54,503 nucleotides of DNA from Ectocarpus siliculosus. Its lineage: Eukaryota > Sar > Phaeophyceae > Ectocarpales > Ectocarpaceae. The translations under genes and the position numbers were made by a program. Position 1 is the stretch's first letter, and every line of letters starts with the position of its first letter. This document shows, in pieces, positions 27,091-42,000 of this stretch. The notes below the pieces were generated by a model. It saw only the letters and a program-made list of their open reading frames with translations. It was not told the DNA's origin and did no database searches. Where the stretch lies: contig FN649743.1 of NCBI GenBank assembly GCA_000310025.1, forward strand, positions 3,145,428-3,199,930, read 5' to 3'.

Positions 27091-30000
27091 ATGGTTTGGG
27101 TGCCCGTGATTCTTCTTCTGTCGTTGGTAACCGTCGTACCCGGATGGTTGGCCTTGTTGTGGAGGTTATTTGCGCACAGGCACGACTTCGAGATAGCGGC
27201 GAGGTCGCCTTCACTGGTTTTCGTGGCTGAGGTGATGTGCCTCATTTTGGTCGTGTCCGTGCTCTCCAACTGGCTTCTACGAAGCATGGGCACCACCCTA
27301 CCTTGCTGGGTCAGCTTCATCGTCTCCTACGGCGGTAAGATGAAGGGAGCACCAACATTGATTCCGCTCTAAATGTTAACGAGGAGTCTTTCAGGGTACA
27401 TGTTGTACCATAAGTCTTACTGCTGTAACAACTGTGATGCTTTCGTCGAACTCGATATGAACTCACCGACTTGGTTTGAAGCCAGAACCACGCATTATGC
27501 CGTTGGGGAACATGCAGTCACGCCGTTGTATGTATTTTTGCAGGTCGCCTACACGTATGCTAGACTATATCTGTTGGTCTCGTTCCACGAAAGGGCCAAC
27601 TTCCACCGCGTTCCACCACCCTCATCCGGCCGTTCCGGGGCATTTCCTTGTTGCAGTGTTCACGGTTACCACCACCCCGTACTTGATTCGGGCCGTCCGA
27701 TTGGTGATCGCGTACAATCGCAAATATCGGCTAAAGTACGCCAGATTCGTGAAGAGAAAACATACGTTGGGCTTGTGGGCCGTGGCCTCCATTGGGCTCA
27801 CCATCCGAGCCGGGCTATTCTTCGGGACCGATCCTGTACACTACTCGAGGTGACAACCAAACACACAGCTTGAAGCCTGCCGGAGTTGACGGCTCTCGAA
27901 AGGCCGGATGCGATTGCAGAATACGTGCAGGTTGTGAAATCGATGCACAGCGTAACAATGAATGTTTCCGAAGTGGGTCCACATTTCATGTCAGATCACG
28001 GCAGTAGAAGAACAAATGGGAGTTATGTACGCAAGGGTCAAAACTTGTTGCAGGTTGACAACCGAAACCTTGGTGCTTCCAAGTCGGTTCAATAGGCAGG
28101 CACAGGTCTCGCGCTATCGCTCCTAGAGCTGCTCCTAAAAAGCGCCCCTAAATGACGCGTCGGTTCACGCGGCCAGATAGTGTAAATGTTATGGAGGAAC
28201 AGAGAAATAAAAGAGGGAAGGGAGCAAGTTCGTTGCTCCTGGCTTCGGGTACTCATAGTTGTTGTTTGATCTCTTGTGTAGCCTTCTTAGACCAGGTCCG
28301 CTCAGCGCCTACTCGGAGAGTGAGGGAGCGGGGCTGGGATTTTGATCTTCCTTCAAGCTACTTCAATACCCCTCAATGTCGTCAAATATCCATATCCAAA
28401 GAAGATTCAAAATATCCAATAAGCGCTCATACAACGTTCATGAAACGCTCGTACAATGCAAATACACTAGTTGCTCCATTACATTAGCCCACCCTGGGAA
28501 GTCGTAGATGCAGATACTTTATCTTCAATCCAATACTCAACCTCAAACAAAGATCGAAGATGCGACTTTCGAAATCAGACAAAAAATAAGATAAAATGAA
28601 AGCAACTAGGATCGGAGAAAATAGTTCATCCCCGACGAATACTCCAAACCATCCCCACACCACACAGTGATGACTACTGAGAATCACATCGCCAACGACG
28701 GAACCAGTCTTAATCAAAACGGGATTCGGTCGCGTTGGGCACGCAAAGGTCGGGGTGACTATTGCAACGATAGAAGAAGCTCACACCACCCAAACACGCG
28801 CTAGCGTACCACTGCGTACGATGTAGAACAAAACATAAAAACATGTAGCGGCCCGTAGGCGGCATGATATCAAAGCACAGATCCAGATGGGGCAACAGCC
28901 AGCTGTACCACAACGCCTGGTGTTCGCGACATAACGCCATCATCCGTGGAAGGGTTGGTCAAACCACGAGTACGGTGTTTTTGCAAGCACCAAGAACCAC
29001 AAGGAGCATCCAAAACCGTGGAGTAACTATATTCTGGGAGAGAAGGCTTTCGAGGGCCGGGGGTGTCCAAGAATCGCACAATGTACTGGCCTGTTACGAA
29101 ACTACTAATCTGCCCAAGCCACCAAAGTCCATCCAACGCTTTGTACCAAATGTGGGCTCCGACAGGCAAAACAGAAACAGAGAAGCGAGCCAACCAAGCG
29201 TCACGCGTAACCAACTCGTACCCGGGAGCAATGAAACGTTCGGCCGGATTCCGAGCAAGTTCTCAGTCGGCGGAAGCTATCCGAGCATTACGATAAGCTC
29301 GGTTTCCCTGTATGCGCTGATTAGCGTTACCAGACCAGTAAAGCAGAATGTGTTTTCTGTATTCCTGCAAATCAGACTCCCTTTCCCACGACGGTGTCAA
29401 CAAACACATGCAATGAGTCAGGTACAAGACAGCTACCACACCACCGCGTCCACGTACAATTTTGGTGTCCTGAAACATTCTCAACATCCAGACGAATAGA
29501 CTCCGCTACAATATCATCAGCAGTCAAATTATACGGGGGAGACTTGTTACTATACGAGTGCAAAACATCTTTCGACAGATTGGCCGGCATATACTTAGGC
29601 AGGTCATCCGTGTCGTATGGGTTGGTACACGGTTTACACCGCAAGACTGAGACACGGTTGCGAGGTTCTGGTCCCAGCATGTCTGACGGCAAGTCCAAGC
29701 AGAGAAGTTTGCGCTCCACAGGTTTTCCATCCGGTGAATCCTCCGCTTTGGCCGGGCCAACAGCAAGGATTTTATACGGTCCGGTGTAGTTGAGCGAAAG
29801 CTTCGCTTTGAGCACTAAATCATCGGTGTGTTTCCGCACACCCTGCCGAATAGTAGCGGCGGAGTTGTAGACCCAAGCCCATCCACCAACTTCGTACTTC
29901 GGGATCTGACGCAGACCGTCCAACAGCGCAGAGTTCCGACGTTCGACACGCGACACCGTACTCGCATGTTGTTCCCGCACCAACGCGTAAGCTCGTCTCT

Positions 30001-33000
30001 GGCGTTCCACCGCAAGGTTGCAGAAAGCGAGCTGGTCTCGATCCAAACTTTGATGGCCACCCACGCTAGGGTGGTCCAAAACAGAAACCGGGAGACGGGG
30101 CAACCGTCCAATATGCACTTCATTGGCGCCAAACCTGTGGCGGTGTTTACCGAGTTGTTGTATGCAAACTCTACATGGGGAAGATGGACGTCCCAATCGT
30201 CCTGACACTCATTGACCACAACAGCAAGCATTTGAGCCATAGTGTGGTTAACACGCTCGGCCCCACCGTTAGTTTGGGGGTGGTACGAACTGGTGGTGAC
30301 TTTCTTGATCTTCATCAGCTCGTAAATAGCCATGGACAACTTGGAACAAAATTGCATACCGTTATCCGAAATAGGAGTCACCGGACAACCCCACAACGGC
30401 ATGTAGCGGTTGACGAAAATGTTAGCCGTTCCCTTAGCGGTAAATTCTGCCTTGGTAGTGGCATACATATCCGCCCGTCGACTGAAACGGTCCGTAAACA
30501 AAAGTATATATGCATTCCCACGGGACGTGACCGGCAATGGCCCGAAACAATCGACGCTCACTACAATACCCGGCCCATTCGGGAGGGACAGAGTGAGCAT
30601 AAGCCAGCGATACGTTTGCCGGGAAGTCTTGCGCGCTTGGCAAAATAAACAATGCCGAAGCCACCAACGAACGGACAAATCCATCCCAATCCACCAGAAA
30701 AATCGCTCCAACATACGTAAAGTCCGAGCGGTGCCCAGGTGAAAAGACGAGGTGGCGTGACATGCTTGTAGGACCCAAGGTCGCTCGCAATAGCATAGGC
30801 ACGTATATGCGCGGAGTCTTTGAAGGCGGGAGGCGAGTGATACGCCCGCCCGAACTACCGAGAGGCAGTGGGGCAGATTTTCGCACCAACAATCGCGTAC
30901 CATCGTCTGTATGTGCAGGCATGTTTTAGATGCGAGGGCGACGACATCAGAAAACGCCGGCCGTCGTGCACAGGGCAAGCAATCCCAGAATGTATCTGGC
31001 AAAGTCGCCGGGAATCCCAAAGAAAAAAAATGTATAGCCGCTACACATTCACTTTCTGACAGCTGTTCTCGGGCCCAATCGGCATGCGAGAATGTATGCA
31101 CACAGTCGCGGAGGTGAGTTTCCTCAGCGGCCGTGGGCGGCACCACGGGAGCCGCAGGGCTAGTACCCGCGGGCGACAACACTGGCGGCATGGGCGCCGC
31201 GGGCGGCGGTGGCGCCGGGGTGGCGGCAGCAGGCGCGAGCGGCGGCGGCGGCGGCAATTCAGCCGGCGCCGAAGAAGGCAGCGGGCCAGAAGTAGGGCTA
31301 CCCACGGTTCTCGTAGACCGCGCGGCACCGCTCTACTGGGCCATTGTTCGAGGAGGCCGCGCGTTCTGGGCACCACAACGGCCCGTGGTTGTTTCGGAAA
31401 ATAATTGGGACGGCTGTGAGCCATGCCCGAGGCCGAATTCGTTCTCGCCCGAGTACGAGAAGAAATCAGAGGGCCACGCGAAAGCGACAGGGCAGCTGAG
31501 GAGGTTCCGACGGTGGACGAGGGAGCGACGTCTGGCTCCGCAGAAACGGAAGCCGGAGGAGGTCCATCGGGCACAGAACTCGCGGGGGCTGCATCGCAAA
31601 CGACAGCGAAAACACCAGGAGGAGAAAATTTCGACGAGTCAACTACGGAGGAGGGCGACTGAGCCGGCAGGACCATTTGTGGCCCAAAACGGCGGAAGTC
31701 CCCAAAGTCAGCCTCCGTCAAAGGCGCGTGTGCCAACGCGTCTCGTTGATCGCCATTGTCGAGCCCACCCAAGCCGATGTTCGGCATCGAACTAGAGTGA
31801 TCACTCCGTCCGCACGCACGAATGAGATAAACGCCCGCGGCGTCATCGACTGCGATACTGGTGTCACCGTGTCTATCCGCGTCGGTCGCCGGCATGGGCA
31901 ACCGCGAAAGAAAATCCGCATTGGCGTTGGCAGTGCCTTTGCGGTAGGCAAGGGTGTAATTGAACGAGGAAAGGAACTCGAGCCAACGTTGGACGCCGGG
32001 CGTTGTGTTCACCCACCTTGACGATGCTCTCCAAAGCCTTGTGATCCGAATAAATCAGAAAGTGCGTAGACCAAAAATAACCGCGTAGGCGTTTGATTGC
32101 CCACACGATACTTCCAGCCTCCAAATCGAGCACTGTTCAATTGCGCTCGGATTCAAGCGTAGCGCGGCTAACGAACAGAATGGGGCGGGTGGAACCATCG
32201 GCCTGTTCCTGTTCAAGGGCCGCACCAAAACCATCCACACAGGCGTCACAGCAAAGCCGGAGAGGGCGGCTGCCATCCGCGACAGCGTCCGAATCCGGGA
32301 AAGCCTGAACCGGAGGTTCGGACAGTTTCGCCAAGAGTATCCGCCATAGCCGGCGTAAAACAAAACTTCGCGTCCTTACGCAAAAGGTCTGTGAGTGGTT
32401 CGACGCGCATGGCCAAACCCTTGATGAATTTGCGGTAATACGAAAGCCCACCCAGCAAGGAACGCAGCTTTTTGACGTTGTTAGGCAGCGGCATTTTTGT
32501 GAGGGCTTCGACCTTATCGGCACGAGGACTAACACCCGCAAGGGAGATTGTGTGACCTAAATAAACAGCCTCCTTAGCGCCGACGCGACTCTTGAAAGGA
32601 GAAAACTTGAGGTTGTATTTGCGCAAACGCTAAAAAAATAACCGTATGTTGGCGACATGGTGGATGGGGTCGGCGTCAAACACAATCACATCGTCCAGGT
32701 ATGCAAGCACATGGTCCAGACCTTTAACCACTTCGTTGATGACCATGGTGAACCACGATGGTGCCACGGAGCTTCCCTGAGGCATACGGAGCCACTCGAA
32801 AAGTTGCGTGGGCGTACAAAACGCCGTAAGCTGAACCGTGTCCTCTTCGACGGTGATCTGGTGGAAAGCGGAGTTGAGATCGAAGATGGAAAACACCTTG
32901 CCCTTGTGCAGGGAATCGATGATGTGGTCAACTCGCGGCTGCGGTTGTTGACCAAGGCTGCACAATTTGTTAAGCTTTTTGTAGTTCACGGTCAAACGCA

Positions 33001-36000
33001 GATTGCCGTCCTTTTTACGCATGACAACCAGAGGGCTCGCCCACGGCGATTGCGAGTGCTGAATAAGACCGGCAGCAAGGTATTGATCGAGAATTGCATC
33101 GACCTTTTTCTCCACCAGAGGGCTGAGCCTATAGGGACGCGAGGCCAACGGTTTCGTGCCCGAGGGCACTTCCAAACCAAACGGTTTCACGGAACAGCAA
33201 CCAAAATCGGACGGCGACCGCGAAAACACATCCGAAAAGTCACACAGCACATCCGCCAGGCTGTTGATGGCTTCCGGGGTCCAACCCGAGTCATGTAAAT
33301 CAAAAGTGACATCGTGCAAATGTGCAGGCAAACGTTGCCACAACTCGCGAAAACTCACTCGCTGCGCTTCTGAGAGGCGTTCCAACAGGTCCGGTGGCGG
33401 CGGTTTCGGCGGCAGTGAGGCCGCGGGAGAGTCCGAGATCTCCGGATCTGCAACCGGGATGTTTGAATGCAAAGAATTCACGCGAGACGGCGGCCCATCC
33501 GCGGAACGGGCTGGCGGCGGAGGGTGACTCAACCCAACGCCCTCGGCCGTCTGCGGTGTAGGATCAATCGACGCAAGCGGAATCTGCACAAGTGGGGCAG
33601 TCGCCACTCCAAGCACCTCACCTGTCTCCAACTCGGCGCACCCTGTCAATGGGATGTGTTGAGGCCCGTCCGAAACAAACGCGTCCGACGACGAGAGGGC
33701 GCCGTGTTTCGGTAAAAACGTGACAAGATAGTTGCCGGTGAGAGCGGGAGTGCCAGAGTTGCGAACGAGGTTCACCCTCGTCAAAGTGGGTTTATCGGAA
33801 AGGGAGACACCCTTCCTGCCGGCGTACCGCAGGAAGTAAGATGCCCCGGGGGCGGAGGGTCCAGCGACATATGCGGAAGCTCCCGCCGCAAAATCCGATG
33901 ACAGAGAAAGTTTCTCCATAATGCGTCCACTCGCCGACCGCGTGGGCAAAGTAGTGGACAAACGAGAGTTAAAACGCATCCAACTATCACGTCCAAGAAG
34001 GAGGGCGTGACCCATGGCGGCAGCTGGGACAACATGCACCCACACTGCTAACGAAGCGGTGGCACTATCACCATAAAAAAATGAACGGACAGTCGCACGG
34101 ATGAGGTGGTTTCAAGAGCATTGCCAGAGCCAAAACCACCCCACTGCCGAACGGGCACCGAACGACGACTGTGGACAGATGCAGCGCCTGACGCCTCCAT
34201 TGCTTCAAGAAAAGCATCACTAATGAAAGATGAAGGTGAGCCCGAGTCCAAAAGGGCTACACCAGGCGCTGTACACACGGCTCCGGTACCACTATGCACA
34301 CGGACTCGCGTCGTAGAGGTATCGCAATCTACTAAAACATCACCGCTCACCAGATCTGGACCGTGTTCCGCCAACAGCGGCGGTGGGGAAGCGGCGGCTT
34401 CGCGAAAAGCAGCAGAGGCAATGTGCAGCACCTGTTTCGAGTGGTCCGCGGGCGTGTTGGCTGGCACGTCCAGCGGGCCACGCGCGTCCTCGGGCGAGGA
34501 ATCATTGGCCGAAGAGTCCTCACCCGGGGGCGCAATTTCGTGGATAGTGGGACACACGGGGGCCGGTTGCCCCGAGTGTTCAGGGCGTAAAGGCTTATCG
34601 GGTTCGACCGGGCGCACACGCAGAAGCGTGCGCGTCGCAACAAGCACTTCGCCCAAGAGGGTTTTACCAGTCCACTTGGAGGCCGACGCCGCACGCGGAT
34701 CGGAGGCATCAACACCAATGCCCCACAATCGGTCATAAGGACTGGCCTCCGCTATCTGTCTATCACCCGTAGCCAACAAACGTTCACGCGCGTCAGCATT
34801 TTGGGCGAATTTTGCATACAAAAGCGAAAAGACAACATTCTCGGGCCGGAGCTCCCATAGAGCATGGTCAAAAACCGCGTACCTTGCGACCAAGGGACTT
34901 GTGTTCTCTCGGGTCGGAGGTAGCCATGATTTTGGCATAAGCGGCATCACCGCCGAAAATGCGGGCTTTCTCCGCCATCATGAACTGTTCGCCGCACACG
35001 CAGCGAATGCCATGAACCGAGAACTCACAGGTCGTCCAGTTAGACAGAAAGGACGGCGGTTTCCAAAAGAGGAAAACCTCATCGTTATAGTATTCCTGAC
35101 AACCGTCAAAAACAGGGGCCTGCCGCGCGGGTGCGCTTACCTTCCCCGAAGAAATATCATCAAGCGAAATGGCACCGGCAACCGGCAGGACAATCTGGGT
35201 GCCACCCGAAGGCGGGCCGGATTGTGGGTTACGAGGAGAGGCAGGCAAGAGCGGTGAACCAGCCGCGGAAGCGTGCGAAACCAAGTGGTCTACGCGGGCG
35301 TTTTCGCGCAAAACGTCGGCGTAGGCCCGTTCATTAAAAGCGGCCTTCATCGCGGGCGCTCGACCAACATGGTCAGCGGCCGCGGGAGGCTCGGGACCGC
35401 TATTTCGTGACAAAGAACATGAAGCTTCCGATTTGGGGAAGCCGTTACTTGCACTCGGCAACGGCGGTGCAGTCAGCACCGTGCGACGTTGGTGCTCCGT
35501 AGAGGAACGTCGCGAGGGGTTCGGAGGGGGCGCGGTGGGTACAAGCGTACTCGAGTCACCGCGGCGGTCCTGCGGCTGTCCCGAAGGTCCCTGTGCTCCA
35601 GCGTGGTTGACGAGACCACCCGGAGCCGCCGAAACGGTGGGAGAAGCCGAAGCCATGCCTCTGGGGGGCGTAGGCATCGGGGCGAGCGTCCGTGAGACAC
35701 CCGAAGTCTGGTCGGCCCCTCGCCCACACCACAAGACTGTATTCGGCGCCGACGAGTCACGTCGGTCATCCAAAACAGGCTGTGATGAGGCGTGGGGCAA
35801 CATCTGAGAAACAAAAGGTTGGGAATCTAACATAGGCGAACCCGAAGGCGTCTGTGTAATACGAACGTCTTGGGAACTAGTCGTACAGCGCACACCCGGT
35901 GCTGTTGACGGCGATGTGTGCAAAAGGCCGTCACCGGCGTGTCAGTTACCCCGCGAGTGCGGGGTTCCGGAACTCCGAGCGTACGGAGTTCCAGGTACGG

Positions 36001-39000
36001 CGGCGGGCGCCGGGGTCGCGGCGGCGCCTACGGCCGGCGCCGGAGGTGGCGTGTGTATAGTTGAGTTACGTTTCCCAGAGCGGCGGCCGTCGCCCTGTGT
36101 ATGGCCGCTGCTCTTACCCGGGCCATTTTTAATGTGTACACGCGGGCGGTGAAACTTCATGCGGCTTTGCCAACGTTGAAAAACCTGAACGCTATCAGCA
36201 TGCGAAGCAATGGCCGGGTTGAAGAGGCCGGTGTAATTGGTGAAAGCATACGGGCAAGTTTTGAGACTGTGGCCCGCCTGCCCACAGTTGAGACATTGGC
36301 CAGAAAATCGCCGCAGAGCTTGCGCTCGGTCGGCAGGGGTCAACAGCGGTGTAAACAAAGGGGGGTCCATCTTAGCCATACTTGCCACAACGCTGTACAC
36401 AAAGCCGTAGTGACCACGCAATGGCCAGCAGTCGTAGTCCTGCTCGAATGGACATGTGTTATCGGACGGCACAGGGTCGATAGCCATCACCCCGGCGGGA
36501 AATTGTGTTCCCGGCGACCACGTGGACGGCTGCAGCGGCGGCGGCGGTGGCGGCCGCTGCTGCCCGACGGTCGCAGCCATGGCTCGTGTGGGCGCCGATG
36601 AAAACCAAATAACGGTCGCCGTTGCAGGCGGGCGAGTGTTTTAGTGCTTCCTCCGACGACAAAGCATCCCAAAGCTCATCCTGATCACTAAACACCACGT
36701 TGTGGAGAATCTTCTCTTTCAACGGCAAAGACGAGAGAACATTCGGGTACTGCTCCAACAAAGCGTCCCGAAGCGCACGCTGTACCATGCGCAGATCCGG
36801 TACGAAAGCCCTATGCGAGGCCAACTCCGACATTGCTAACGCCTTAAACTTCGTAACGAATTTGCTGTACGGCGTGCCGTTGGGCATGCCAAAATCCTGC
36901 AGCTTGTCGATGCCCCGGTTGAAACCTTTCGGTTCCCACTTATCCGCAAGCAGTTTGAGCAGCCGGCGGTATGCAGAAGGCCCCGACTTGTCCTTCGTCT
37001 CCAAGAAACGTTTCACCTGAGAAAACGAAGAATCCACCAATTCGCGGGTTGCGGCATTGGCGCCTTGAGGATTCGAAATGGCCATGAGGACACGCTTGTG
37101 AAAGGGAGCATACCATCCAGCCACCCACGAGGGCGACTTGATGGCCTGCTTGCCGGAGGGATCAGCGGCCGACAGGATTTCAGCCAACACACTTTCGGTC
37201 GAACGAGCGAAGGTAGAAAATTCTGCTGTTGGAAGCGGCACTACCGCATACAATTCGTTCACTTTAAGCTTGCCGTATCCTTTGCGCACGCTGAGGGCGT
37301 ACGCCTCTGCGGCGGCAACGTCGTTTGCATCAAGCTGTGCCTGCGCGGTGCGTGCACCGGCAGACGACAGGGGCAGTGCTCGGTCATCAGCGGAATCGCT
37401 CACGGCCGCGTGCACGGCCGGCAGCGGTGGCCTCGTTACCGACACCGCGATAGCCGAGACCGGTGGTTCCTGTGGCAAAAAACGTTGGAAGGGCGTCGGT
37501 ACCACCCCAGAAACCTGTGTCGTCTCCGGTTTTACAATGGAGGCGGGGGGCGGTACCTCTGTTTTCACAGCGGCAAATGATGGATGCGACGGCAAAGCGG
37601 AGGCTACTGACGGTGGCTCTGACTTTACTAACGGCACTGGCTGTTGTGGCATCACCGGCGGCACCGGCGGCTGCGGCACCGGCGGTCTCGGCACCGATGG
37701 CGGCGGCACCGACGACCGCGGCACCGGCGGCTGTGGCACCGGCGGCTGCGGTACCTGCGGCATCGGCACCGGCGGCAACGGCACCGACGGCTGCGGCACC
37801 GGCTGCGGCGGCATCTGCAACGGCGGTACATAAAGGGGTCAAAACAGAAAAAAAAATCGCGTAAAGCGTGACAACGCGAAAAAAAAAAAGAGGGGCGCAG
37901 AGAGAGAGGCAAGAAAGATAGATGTGGATGAAGCCTATGCCATCACACAGAGGCCATCAATGCACACACAACAATGATATCTCACTCATCCGACACCACC
38001 CGTCAGATGTGTGTGCAGAGGGTCTGGCTACTGTGTAGCTGCGCATGGATATGTGAGGGCATATTGTTTGGTGTGGACGAAGAAGCTCATCAAAAACTGC
38101 TTGCTGCTGCTGCTGCTGCTGCTGCTGCTATGTTGCTGCTGCGGGGAAAATCGGAGACACCGCGCATGGCTGTGCACTCTTGCTCCCCTCTCTTACGCTG
38201 CTAGCAGCAGGAAACGGGCTCCAAAAATTGCTCCCGACGCCTCCTATGAGGTCTGCGTTGGCCGCCTTTGGCCTACAGCAGCGTGTACTTCCCCTCGTCT
38301 CTCGTTCGCGGGGTGAAAGTAGAACACACACACACACACACATATATTTTTTCAACGAATGGTGGTCTTGGCAAAGGCACCAATCGACTCATCGTTGCTA
38401 TCGCCAACCACTTGGCGCACGAAGCTTTTTGCCGGGGGAATTATGACGACGAAAGAGCCTTAGTTCGCCTAAATGTTTTCATACTAACAGGATTCGGAGG
38501 CGGTTTACCTTCGAGCTAGCTCGTTTCTGTCGACGCGAACTCGCGATGTGTTCAAACGTCATGGGCTACTGATCGACCAACTTCCATCAGGGCCAATCGG
38601 TTGGGATCTCTGCGACAACGATAATAATGAGGGTAATTCTTTTAGGCGTGACGGAGACGAAGGAAAGGGAAGGGGAAGAAAGGAGGACGAAGACGACGAT
38701 GGAGGAGGAAAACATGGAGGAGTAGAAGAGAGCAAAGGGTTTGAGCCAGATGACCTTCCCCAAAACAAAAAACGTAGGGCTAGGGAAGAACTGCCCAGAG
38801 ATTCTTGTCAAAGTGAGGATCAGAATGATGGTAGCGAAAACAAGGAGGCTAACGGTGAAAGTACTCCTAAACAAACTAGAGTACAAAGTAATAGCCTTGG
38901 TAGACGCGTCCAGTTTTCTTCTGTTGCTCCTGTTTCTGTCTTTGATCCGAAGGATAGTTTAGCCTCCCCCATGCTGCCCCCTCACGGGGTCCCAGTTCAT

Positions 39001-42000
39001 GGCAGATAGAAGTGTTTTGTGTTTTCAACCGCACTAAGACTGACGTATTTTCATTGGTCAGCCGGTTAGCGCGGTCGATGCTAACAATAAAAACACACAC
39101 ACGCACACACATACAACAGATAGAAGTGTTTTGTGTTTTCAACCGCACTAAGACTGACGTATTTTCATTGGTCAGCCGGTTAGCGCGGTCGATGCTAACA
39201 ATAAAAACACACACACGCACACACATACAACAGATAGAAGTGTTTTGTGTTTTCAACCGCACTAAGGCTGACGTATTTTCATTGGTCAGCCGGTTAGCGC
39301 GGTCGATGCTAATAATAAAAACACCATCGCCCGGTTTTGCCTACAGTTTTTTCGGGGATTCGCGAGCGTGGGTATATGTCGCCACCTCTCTCTGCTTCCC
39401 GCCGCTCGCTACGGAGAGCGAATTTCTGTTCTGCTGCTAAGTAAGCTGCTGCTGGTTGCCTCGTGTGGGTCATGTACATCATTTGAACAAAATATGCAAA
39501 TTCTCATAGGAAGAATGAGAGTTCTCATGCGACCCCATGGGGCCTCACGGGACCTCATGAGAATTCGCGTGAGAAGTCTCATGGGGTCTCATAAGACGTC
39601 TCATTGTGTCCCATAAGACCTCTCATGAGAACTCCTGAGACTTCTCACGAGAATTCTCATGGGGTCTCATAAGACTCTTATGAGACCCCATGAGAATTCT
39701 CGTGAGAAGTCTCATGAGCTCTCATGAGCTCTCATGAGATCTCATGAGCTCTCATGAGCTCTCATGACTTCCCATGGCTTCTCATGAGCTCTCATGAGCT
39801 CTCATGGGCTCTCATAAACTCTCATGGGCTCTCATGATCTCTCATGGGCTCTCATGAGCTCTCATGGGTTCTCATGGGCTCTCATGAGATCTCATGGAGT
39901 ATCGTAGTGTCACATGGGTGGTCTCACGGGGTCGCATGGAGTCTCATGGGATCTCGTGGCCTCTCATACGGTCTTATGAGGTCCCATGGGAGCACATGCG
40001 AATTCCCATGAGAACTCGCATATTATATCTAAATAATGTAGATGGGTGTGTTGTCTCTTGTGCTGCTCAGGCTGATGTCTCTGTATGTTGGTCTATCATC
40101 GTGGTGCCCAGATGTGTGAATGGCCAACAGGTAAGGTTGCCGTTCGCCAGAAGCGATTTTAGAGTCGACTGGAAAATCGCGCCTAGCGGAAAAATAATCG
40201 CTTCTTCTGATTTTCGAAAAACGTGCCAAACCGAAGTGGAGGAACTTCCAGAGTCGATATCTCCCCCAGGAGCGCTTTTAGAGTCGATTTTTCCCAGACG
40301 GGAAACCCGTTAATGTTTTCGAACTTTTAGATAAAACCAGCAAGGTTTAGCATAGCATTTCATTGGTACCGTAGCCTTGAACGAAAGTGCCCTGTCAAGC
40401 GTTCGCCTCATCCATCTCTTTCACCCAGACAAGTATCCACCCAAGCATCCCACTATCGACAAACGCGTAAGCACGGCCATGGTAGCCGAGATTTGTCGAT
40501 TGAACGCAACATGAAAACGCGTGTTTGAGGTAAATCTCTCCTCTCATCCCTTTCACCTCCCGGCTCACCTGAACTGTTGTCTAATCTGCAGCGACATGCG
40601 AGAGTGTTTTTACTGGGACGACATCATTCTCCTTGGAGCAGCACTCCTTTTTGGCGCAGCGCCGGTGTCCCTTTTGGTCGTACGAATATCGCGAGTAAAT
40701 GACGCTTTCAAGCTTCGCGAAGAATTGTGTTGTACGATCATGGGCTGCTGCAGCAGTGCAGGTGAGGCAAGATTTAGCTATCTAAAGGTTACACCCAGCT
40801 ACCGTAGACGTTCGATATAGCACTCCACCCCCTCTCTCGGAGGGCTTCCCGGCACCAGTCAAGAGTAGAGTGAGCGTCCTGATGCAGAGGAACAGGATAC
40901 GTCAAGACTATTATTGTTTTCCATGTGTGTTATGGGTTCTGTGATGCAAACAGAGGCCTTGCTTCATCGTTGTTATACGTGTCATACACCATGAACACGC
41001 CCCCAGAGCGTCGAGGAAGTTTGCGGCCAAATTCTGCTTGCCGTGCGTCACGCACGATGCGAGCCAAAACCAACAGATTCTGGAATAGCGATTTCCACCA
41101 ACGATTGCCTGACGATAAAGAGGATCCACCAACTAGCACGCCACGCTGTCCCTGGGCCTCTGTCTCTGCATTGTACGCAGTTGTACTGTGGGCGATCCAA
41201 GTGCTGGTGGAACTGGAAATGTTGTCCAATACACCTGGACTTCATGTGGTGGTCGAAGTGCTAGCGCTCCTGTTCGGGATGAACGGTGGATTTTGGGGGT
41301 GAGACGAACCTCATTGTTGCTGTGGGTAGTATCATGCCTCGAACAGGTTAATTCGCCTCAGAATCAGTCACATTCGTTTAGCCTCTGGGTCCGCGCCGAC
41401 AAAGTAGGGTTTGGCTTCCAAGCAGAACGTGATACAGGCTCGTGCAATGTAGTCGGGCCTCCCTCCATCTTGGCGAGGATGTATGACAGGGCATGGGCAT
41501 GTCCGGGGAGACCTTCTTCTCTCACCTGCCACCTGCATGAAATCACAATGCAAGCCAAGACAATGCTCCATCATTTGGCCGCCCGCGCGTGCTCGACGCA
41601 TTGGCTGTTGCATCGATGCAGGTTGCTCCTTCCCATGGTGAGAGCCCATCGTGGCGGGGTGCAGGCATGGTTCAGGGCCACTGTGGTTCCTGTCGAAGAG
41701 ACGGTTGCCATGTCAGCGTTGGACGTGGGTGGCGTGCTACGGCTCGCAAGCAGTGATGGAGAAATTGCTGAGCAGTTTGGAATTTTCTGCCAGGAGAACC
41801 TGTGCATGGAGAGCTGGGATTTCCTCGTCGACGTTGTCCGCTATAAACGGATTGCCCCAGGCCTCGTAAGTACATGTGCAGCTGCCAGATACAGAACATG
41901 ACATTGATGCTCCTTTGATAAACCAGCGCCGGACAAACACCTTTGCTCTCTGCATGCGTACGGAATGGGCGACACCATGCATCATGATTATCAAGTTGGT

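What the first reader, a model, noticed from the sequence alone, without database searches (positions are those of the whole stretch)
34620..35083. NADAR (YbiA-like) domain inside a Ty3/gypsy gag-pol polyprotein
Seen: minus-strand frames between the gag zinc knuckle and the retropepsin motif carry, in order, FWKPPSFLSNW, EQFMMAEKARIFGG, SLGRKVRGF, LLATGD, EASPYDRLWGIG and LLGEVLVATRTLL. Known: this order is the NADAR/YbiA superfamily, whose members act on ADP-ribose N-glycosidic bonds, including reversal of ADP-ribosylation on guanine bases. Inference: a retroelement that carries an ADP-ribose eraser could protect its RNA, cDNA or proteins from host ADP-ribosylation, an anti-defence role. The domain is continuous with gag on one side (same frame, one TGA) and with protease on the other (same frame), so it is part of the element. 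I do not know of NADAR as a regular component of LTR elements.
Basis: partly seen in the sequence, partly recalled or inferred. Interest (0 to 1): 0.88.

Follow-up and report, generated by a model that had tools for sequence, protein, structure and literature searches.

The report
ADP-ribose-removing enzyme inside a retrotransposon
A large family of retrotransposons in this genome carries, next to its protease, a bacterial-type enzyme domain of the kind that removes ADP-ribose from guanine; the fusion has already been reported for the brown alga Ectocarpus, and here it looks intact, selected for and acquired once, though what it does for the element is still unknown.

Summary
A NADAR (YbiA-type) domain lies on the minus strand at about 34618-35068, between the gag zinc knuckle and the protease of a Ty3/Gypsy element. 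The window copy is dead: 5'-truncated, with the domain split by a frameshift. It is not a one-off. In capped searches the same genome gave 150 NADAR matches, and 124 of 150 listed RT relatives have one within 4 kb. In 22 of 24 copies, from five subfamilies, all eight ADP-ribose-contacting or catalytic residues are kept. Selection is about as strong as on protease (omega 0.078 vs 0.084), while the upstream linker has diverged to shuffled-sequence level. The 11 element NADARs put in a tree form one clade beside Myxococcota/Planctomycetota proteins. The "one TGA" is not decay: gag and pol are separated by TGA-C in 23 of 24 copies and the window, which suggests stop readthrough and puts NADAR in Pol. 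Not new in kind: PMC12477816 (2025) reports a NADAR-bearing Gypsy lineage in Ectocarpus. Best mechanism, inferred only: a particle-packaged hydrolase that clears ADP-ribose from guanines of the element's RNA or cDNA.

The parts
28181..37829 (-). 5'-truncated, decayed Ty3/Gypsy element of subfamily A
   Evidence: Sibling similarity ends near 37829; 3' end near 28181-28187, where the sequence shared by many copies stops; the sequence there begins TG on the + strand
36462..37829 (-). gag, N-terminal part (truncated at its start)
   Evidence: 93-94% identical to siblings L015, L020 and L028 over the parts aligned; no Pfam match
35945..36640 (-). gag, C-terminal part with CCHC zinc knuckle at about 36251-36301, in another frame than the N-terminal part in this copy
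   Evidence: Pfam zf-CCHC E 0.049, below cut-off; 95-96% identical to siblings
35942..35944 (-). in-frame TGA followed by C between gag and pol; putative readthrough stop
   Evidence: TGA-C at the same junction in 23 of 24 copies examined, five subfamilies, and in the window
34871..35068 (-). NADAR domain, N-terminal half
   Evidence: PF08719 E 3.2e-12
34618..34887 (-). NADAR domain, C-terminal half, in the next frame; one of the eight ADP-ribose-contact positions is substituted here
   Evidence: PF08719 E 3.3e-23; alignment to 8BAU and sibling copies
34201..34320 (-). aspartic protease
   Evidence: RVP_2 E 0.0067, below cut-off; 96-98% identical to siblings
32654..33019 (-). reverse transcriptase
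   Evidence: RVT_1 E 2.5e-22
32140..32280 (-). RNase H (part)
   Evidence: RT_RNaseH_2 E 2.4e-9
30277..30786 (-). integrase: H2C2 zinc domain and core
   Evidence: Integrase_H2C2 E 1.5e-13; rve E 1.6e-6, below cut-off
28181..28300 (-). 3' end of the element, probably the end of the 3' LTR
   Evidence: The same ~116 bases recur, in the same orientation, 13.1 kb from the 3' end of copies on C8 and C10

Best explanation
A bacterial YbiA-type NADAR was captured once by a Ty3/Gypsy element and has since been inherited as a fixed domain of Pol, just upstream of the protease. Shown by computation: domain, fold, intact active site, purifying selection, single clade, and a conserved TGA-C between gag and pol. 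Inferred: ribosomes sometimes read through the TGA, so NADAR is made in the same low amount as RT and integrase, is packaged into the virus-like particle and released by the protease. There it hydrolyses ADP-ribose from guanine bases of the element's RNA or cDNA, lesions that would block reverse transcription.
For: 150 NADAR places scored, all over the cut-off; 124 of 150 listed RT relatives have a listed NADAR within 4 kb. Order gag-NADAR-PR-RT-RNase H-IN in five subfamilies. All eight Phytophthora NADAR contact/catalytic residues kept in 22 of 24 copies; the two exceptions are read in a shifted frame inside the domain. Model of the L013 domain pLDDT 93.8; best solved match 8BAU, NADAR with ADP-ribose, TM 0.89. 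omega 0.078 against 0.084 PR, 0.057 RT, 0.067 RNase H. Linker upstream at shuffled identity, NADAR 57-66%. One clade, 99/90. TGA-C junction. Literature: NADARs remove guanine ADP-ribose from DNA (PMC11543638, passages) and RNA (PMC11833690, passages).
Against: No substrate or activity is shown. The host writer is unknown: DarT gives no match; PARP gives four short matches of 26-33 bits, marked over or about at the 26.7-bit cut-off, in a search that cannot join exons. The domain also passes the cut-off of the riboflavin-intermediate N-glycosidase model TIGR02464 (142-151 bits against 73.7). Synonymous sites are saturated between subfamilies, so omega is approximate. Readthrough is inferred from sequence only.
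Confidence: 0.45

Rival explanations
1. Counter-defence: the host (or a competing virus) ADP-ribosylates element RNA, cDNA or proteins as restriction, and NADAR reverses exactly that.
For: Strong selection and kept active site; the PADLOC candidate-defence model PDC-M42C matches at E 2.6e-38 and 1.1e-41, which shows only that NADARs occur in candidate defence systems.
Against: No host guanine ADP-ribosyltransferase found (DarT); PARP matches short and weak. No arms-race signal was tested; omega over the whole domain is low.
Confidence: 0.2
2. Metabolite hygiene: the domain cleaves N-glycosidic bonds in damaged small molecules such as riboflavin-pathway intermediates or nucleotides, as the E. 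coli YbiA and plant enzymes do (PMC11543638, passages).
For: TIGR02464 match above cut-off in representatives of all five subfamilies; dUTPase in some retroviruses is a precedent (recalled).
Against: YbiA proteins also act on guanine ADP-ribose (PMC11125620, passages), so the model match does not separate the two; why an element should clean riboflavin intermediates is unclear.
Confidence: 0.15
3. Non-enzymatic role: the domain binds nucleic acid or ADP-ribose, or spaces gag-pol for assembly.
For: It sits in a polyprotein beside a long, poorly conserved linker.
Against: The catalytic residues are kept in all 22 copies that are not frame-shifted inside the domain, which binding alone would not demand.
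Confidence: 0.1
4. One-off capture or passenger in a dead copy.
For: The window copy itself is dead.
Against: 150 scored NADAR places, five subfamilies, omega 0.078.
Confidence: 0.01

Closest known systems
NADAR-bearing Gypsy lineage of Ectocarpus (Gypsy-12_Ec32 and relatives; PMC12477816, section 5 part 1 and passages read)
   Same: [quoted passage not shown] blastp hits almost exclusively bacterial
   Different: The words catalytic, active site, readthrough and stop codon do not occur in its main text; purifying occurs once, about another matter. Whether this genome is that species was not tested
Tx1 LINEs of Crassostrea gigas with NADAR-like ORF1 (PMC12477816, same section)
   Same: A retroelement with a NADAR domain
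   Different: Non-LTR element; NADAR in ORF1, reported there as divergent
NADAR domains of Roniviridae, nidoviruses (PMC11287256, passages)
   Same: NADAR in an RNA-based replicator; said there to be associated with RNA repair
   Different: RNA viruses without reverse transcription; not compared by sequence here
Phytophthora nicotianae NADAR, 8BAU (PMC11543638, passages)
   Same: Fold, and all eight contact/catalytic residues
   Different: A NADAR of its own solved as a 189-residue chain, 33% identical in the structural alignment
Myxococcota and Planctomycetota YbiA-like proteins (L046-L048)
   Same: 56-61% identical, within the range of the subfamilies among themselves (54-68%)
   Different: Bacterial open frames of 174-193 residues holding NADAR alone
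dUTPase fused upstream of protease in betaretroviruses (recalled, no call)
   Same: Small hygiene enzyme in the same polyprotein position
   Different: Another enzyme family

Membership tests
NADAR superfamily, YbiA family | Profile match above curated cut-off | tested here: met
   PF08719 47.4 and 83.2 bits for the window halves, about 157 bits for three copies with an unbroken domain, cut-off 35.1
NADAR superfamily, YbiA family | Glutamate at the position of E125 (aspartate in BC4488 family, histidine in phage proteins) | tested here: met
   Glutamate in 24 of 24 copies and in the window
NADAR superfamily, YbiA family | YbiA fold | tested here: met
   Foldseek TM 0.89 to 8BAU, 0.79 to 2B3W, model of the L013 domain
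NADAR superfamily, YbiA family | Hydrolysis of guanine-linked ADP-ribose | not testable with these tools
   Needs an enzyme assay
Ty3/Gypsy LTR retrotransposon | Order PR-RT-RNase H-IN | tested here: met
Ty3/Gypsy LTR retrotransposon | Long terminal repeats | tested here: inconclusive
   About 116 bases of the 3' end recur 13.1 kb away in two copies; full LTRs not delimited; none in the window copy, which lacks its 5' end
[quoted passage not shown]
Ectocarpus NADAR Gypsy lineage | Putative C-terminal chromodomain on integrase | tested here: inconclusive
   No Pfam chromodomain in the integrase-bearing pieces scanned, but the pieces of the copies were cut by coordinates and may stop short of the C-terminus
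Ectocarpus NADAR Gypsy lineage | RT tree places it in that lineage | not tested
   Sequences of that paper were not available here
DarT1-associated (BC4488) NADAR antitoxin | Aspartate at the E125 position and adjacent DarT | tested here: not met
   Glutamate; no DarT match in the genome
Riboflavin-intermediate N-glycosidase (TIGR02464) | Model cut-off | tested here: met
   142-151 bits against 73.7, one representative of each of five subfamilies; the window halves alone stay below it (38.4 and 67.9); activity not tested
Readthrough-expressed gag-pol | gag and pol in one frame separated by a single conserved stop | tested here: met
   TGA-C in 23 of 24 copies and the window; frame shared in eight copies of B, C and D whose gag and pol ends are open; readthrough itself not testable here

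The most novel reading that the evidence does not exclude
The element carries a packaged nucleic-acid de-ADP-ribosylase, made in catalytic amounts by readthrough of a conserved UGA, that keeps its RNA and cDNA free of ADP-ribosylated guanine; this would mean that guanine ADP-ribosylation is a real barrier to retrotransposition in the host.
Probability: 0.35. Interest if true: 0.85.

Novelty: already known. Interest (0 to 1): 0.52.

Why it matters
NADAR's physiological roles outside toxin-antitoxin pairs are called unclear in PMC11125620 (passages). A retroelement that has kept the active site through deep divergence says that something ADP-ribose-like threatens its RNA, cDNA or proteins, and gives a simple system for finding it. 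The kept active site and the conserved UGA-C junction were not found in the main text of the published account.

Tried and rejected
Rejected: one-off capture (150 scored NADAR places; omega). Not found: relatives with gag joined straight to protease. Of 150 listed RT relatives, 26 had no listed NADAR within 4 kb (both lists are capped). Twenty of the 26 were looked at, 700 bases each at the expected place: 8 hold NADAR DNA, 1 (L127) holds only the linker upstream of NADAR, 11 hold neither. Four of those 11 were read over 3 kb: in two (L136, L139) similarity starts abruptly downstream of NADAR; one (L138) shows none; one (L137) keeps about 430 bases resembling the leader or gag start of other copies some 0.7 kb before the RT, with no NADAR or protease seen, an internal deletion or a nested fragment. 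None shows gag joined to protease. The other 7 of the 11, and 6 of the 26, were not followed.

Led nowhere: the idea that the domain comes from a YarT-like toxin-antitoxin pair; the neighbours of L046-L048 were only looked at by eye, and the one scanned is DUF6304. An LTR pair in the window: none found; the copy is 5'-truncated. Against my reading: the NADAR tree joins C with D (80/83) where RT and PR join D with E (96/96 and 96/92), a weak conflict; the split (A,B)|(C,D,E) agrees. No host writer was found.

Rows dropped: for omega, L016 and L019 (stop in NADAR) and L027 and L028 (shifted frame) were left out of NADAR, leaving 16 distinct of 20; PR, RT and RNase H used 18, 20 and 17 distinct of 22, 21 and 20 usable copies. 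The omega = 1 runs had kappa fixed at 2 and all runs a fixed tree. The tree used 11 of 24 element rows and 80 of 85 outside rows.

Full report
What is there. On the minus strand of the window a Ty3/Gypsy element runs from about 37829 to 28181. Pfam finds NADAR in two adjacent frames, 34871-35068 (E 3.2e-12) and 34618-34887 (E 3.3e-23), each above the curated cut-off, between the gag zinc knuckle and the protease, followed by RT, RNase H and integrase. Each half alone also matches solved NADAR structures. The copy is dead: its 5' end is missing, and the frame breaks in gag, inside NADAR, after the protease and between RT and RNase H.

It is a family trait. The window lies in a 189-Mb assembly of 492 contigs, not named. 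A search of it with PF08719 scored 150 of 230 candidates, and all 150 rows are over the cut-off. A search with the window RT scored 150 of 430 candidates and gives relatives at roughly 96, 73, 62-65 and 57% identity. By domain and tree comparison the 24 copies used fall into five subfamilies, here called A (the window's) to E. Of the 150 RT places, 124 have a listed NADAR within 4 kb. As a control, of the 48 best integrase-zinc matches (of 150 scored, 402 candidates), 1 lies within 12 kb of a listed NADAR, 9.6 kb away, and the same one is the only one within 12 kb of a listed RT relative; that the other 47 belong to other lineages is inferred from these capped lists. In 20 copies of 10 kb, tblastn finds NADAR, PR, RT and RNase H in 20 of 20, gag and integrase in 19 of 20. 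The 26 RT places without a listed NADAR gave no case of gag joined straight to protease among those followed (see Tried and rejected).

The active site is intact. The Phytophthora NADAR-ADP-ribose paper (PMC11543638, passages) names E43, K50, R79, W89, R93, E125, D130 and W133. All eight are kept in 22 of 24 copies; L027 and L028 differ at three positions because the middle of the domain is read in a shifted frame there. Two of the 22, L016 and L019, have a stop inside the domain. Five subfamily representatives are 54-68% identical in this domain, with 67 of 160 columns invariant, so the eight are part of a wider conserved core. In the window copy one of the eight is substituted. AlphaFold2 gives pLDDT 93.8 for the L013 domain, and the best solved matches are 8BAU (TM 0.89) and YbiA 2B3W (TM 0.79).

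It is under selection. With a GY codon model omega is 0.078 for NADAR, 0.084 for PR, 0.057 for RT and 0.067 for RNase H; fixing omega at 1 (and kappa at 2) costs NADAR 177 log-likelihood units. Synonymous sites are saturated between subfamilies, so a second check was made on representatives of B, C and D: the linker between the TGA and NADAR aligns at 29-31%, no better than shuffled sequence (means 31-34%), while NADAR in the same proteins stays at 57-66%. Copies of one subfamily are 95.5-99.6% identical over the parts aligned, which suggests recent movement.

Origin. With 80 bacterial, archaeal and viral NADARs, the 11 element rows form one clade (99/90), whose sister is one Planctomycetota and two Myxococcota proteins (95/71). 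These are 56-61% identical to the element domain, within the range of the subfamilies among themselves, whereas the best viral-contig hit is 49% (51% against the best of five element rows). Both scans start from short peptide patterns, so nearer relatives may have been missed, and no eukaryote collection was searched. The simplest reading is one capture from a bacterium, then co-divergence; RT, PR and NADAR all split (A,B) from (C,D,E), with a weak disagreement over E.

The TGA. In 23 of 24 copies, covering five subfamilies (E by one copy), and in the window, gag ends in TGA followed by C, and pol begins just beyond it. In eight copies of B, C and D both sides are open and share one frame; in other copies later frameshifts intervene. 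The 24th, L008, has no recognisable junction. A stop conserved as TGA-C across this divergence is best read as a programmed readthrough site, as known for UAG in murine leukaemia virus (PMC5009743, passages). It places NADAR in Pol, some 290-430 residues after the stop, hence probably in catalytic amounts.

What it probably does. Of the hydrolase families tested in PMC11833690 (passages), NADARs alone removed ADP-ribose from guanosine bases in RNA; they do the same on DNA (PMC11543638, PMC11125620, passages). An enzyme packaged with RT could clear such adducts from the template or cDNA. This is inference. The host writer is unknown, and the domain also meets the riboflavin-intermediate N-glycosidase model.

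Novelty. [quoted passage not shown] The composition is therefore already known. In its main text the words catalytic, active site, readthrough and stop codon do not occur. Paper searches that ran on the subject: and 78 on readthrough; three others failed. Supplements could not be read.

Noticed in passing
35942-35944 and loci L003-L028: Conserved in-frame TGA-C between gag and pol in copies of five subfamilies, a likely readthrough site.
   Followed up: yes
38348-38499: A dispersed repeat of about 152 bases just outside the element, found at 39 other places at 86-97% identity (40 of 224 candidates scored).
   Followed up: no
39003-39344: Three tandem copies of a 114-base unit, two of them identical.
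   Followed up: no
39680-40021: A 10-base array around TCTCATGAGC.
   Followed up: no
L031-L045: 15 viral contigs encode NADARs 30-49% identical to the element's, two of them on contigs over 400 kb.
   Followed up: partly
L047 1977-2687: The Polyangia NADAR gene overlaps a DUF6304 gene, a possible two-gene operon.
   Followed up: no
L137 2281-2709: Leader or gag-start sequence of other copies lies about 0.7 kb before an RT with no NADAR or protease seen: a possible internally deleted derivative.
   Followed up: no
G000 C42:47342: An integrase, probably of another Gypsy lineage, in a 3503-residue open frame, 9.6 kb from a listed NADAR.
   Followed up: no
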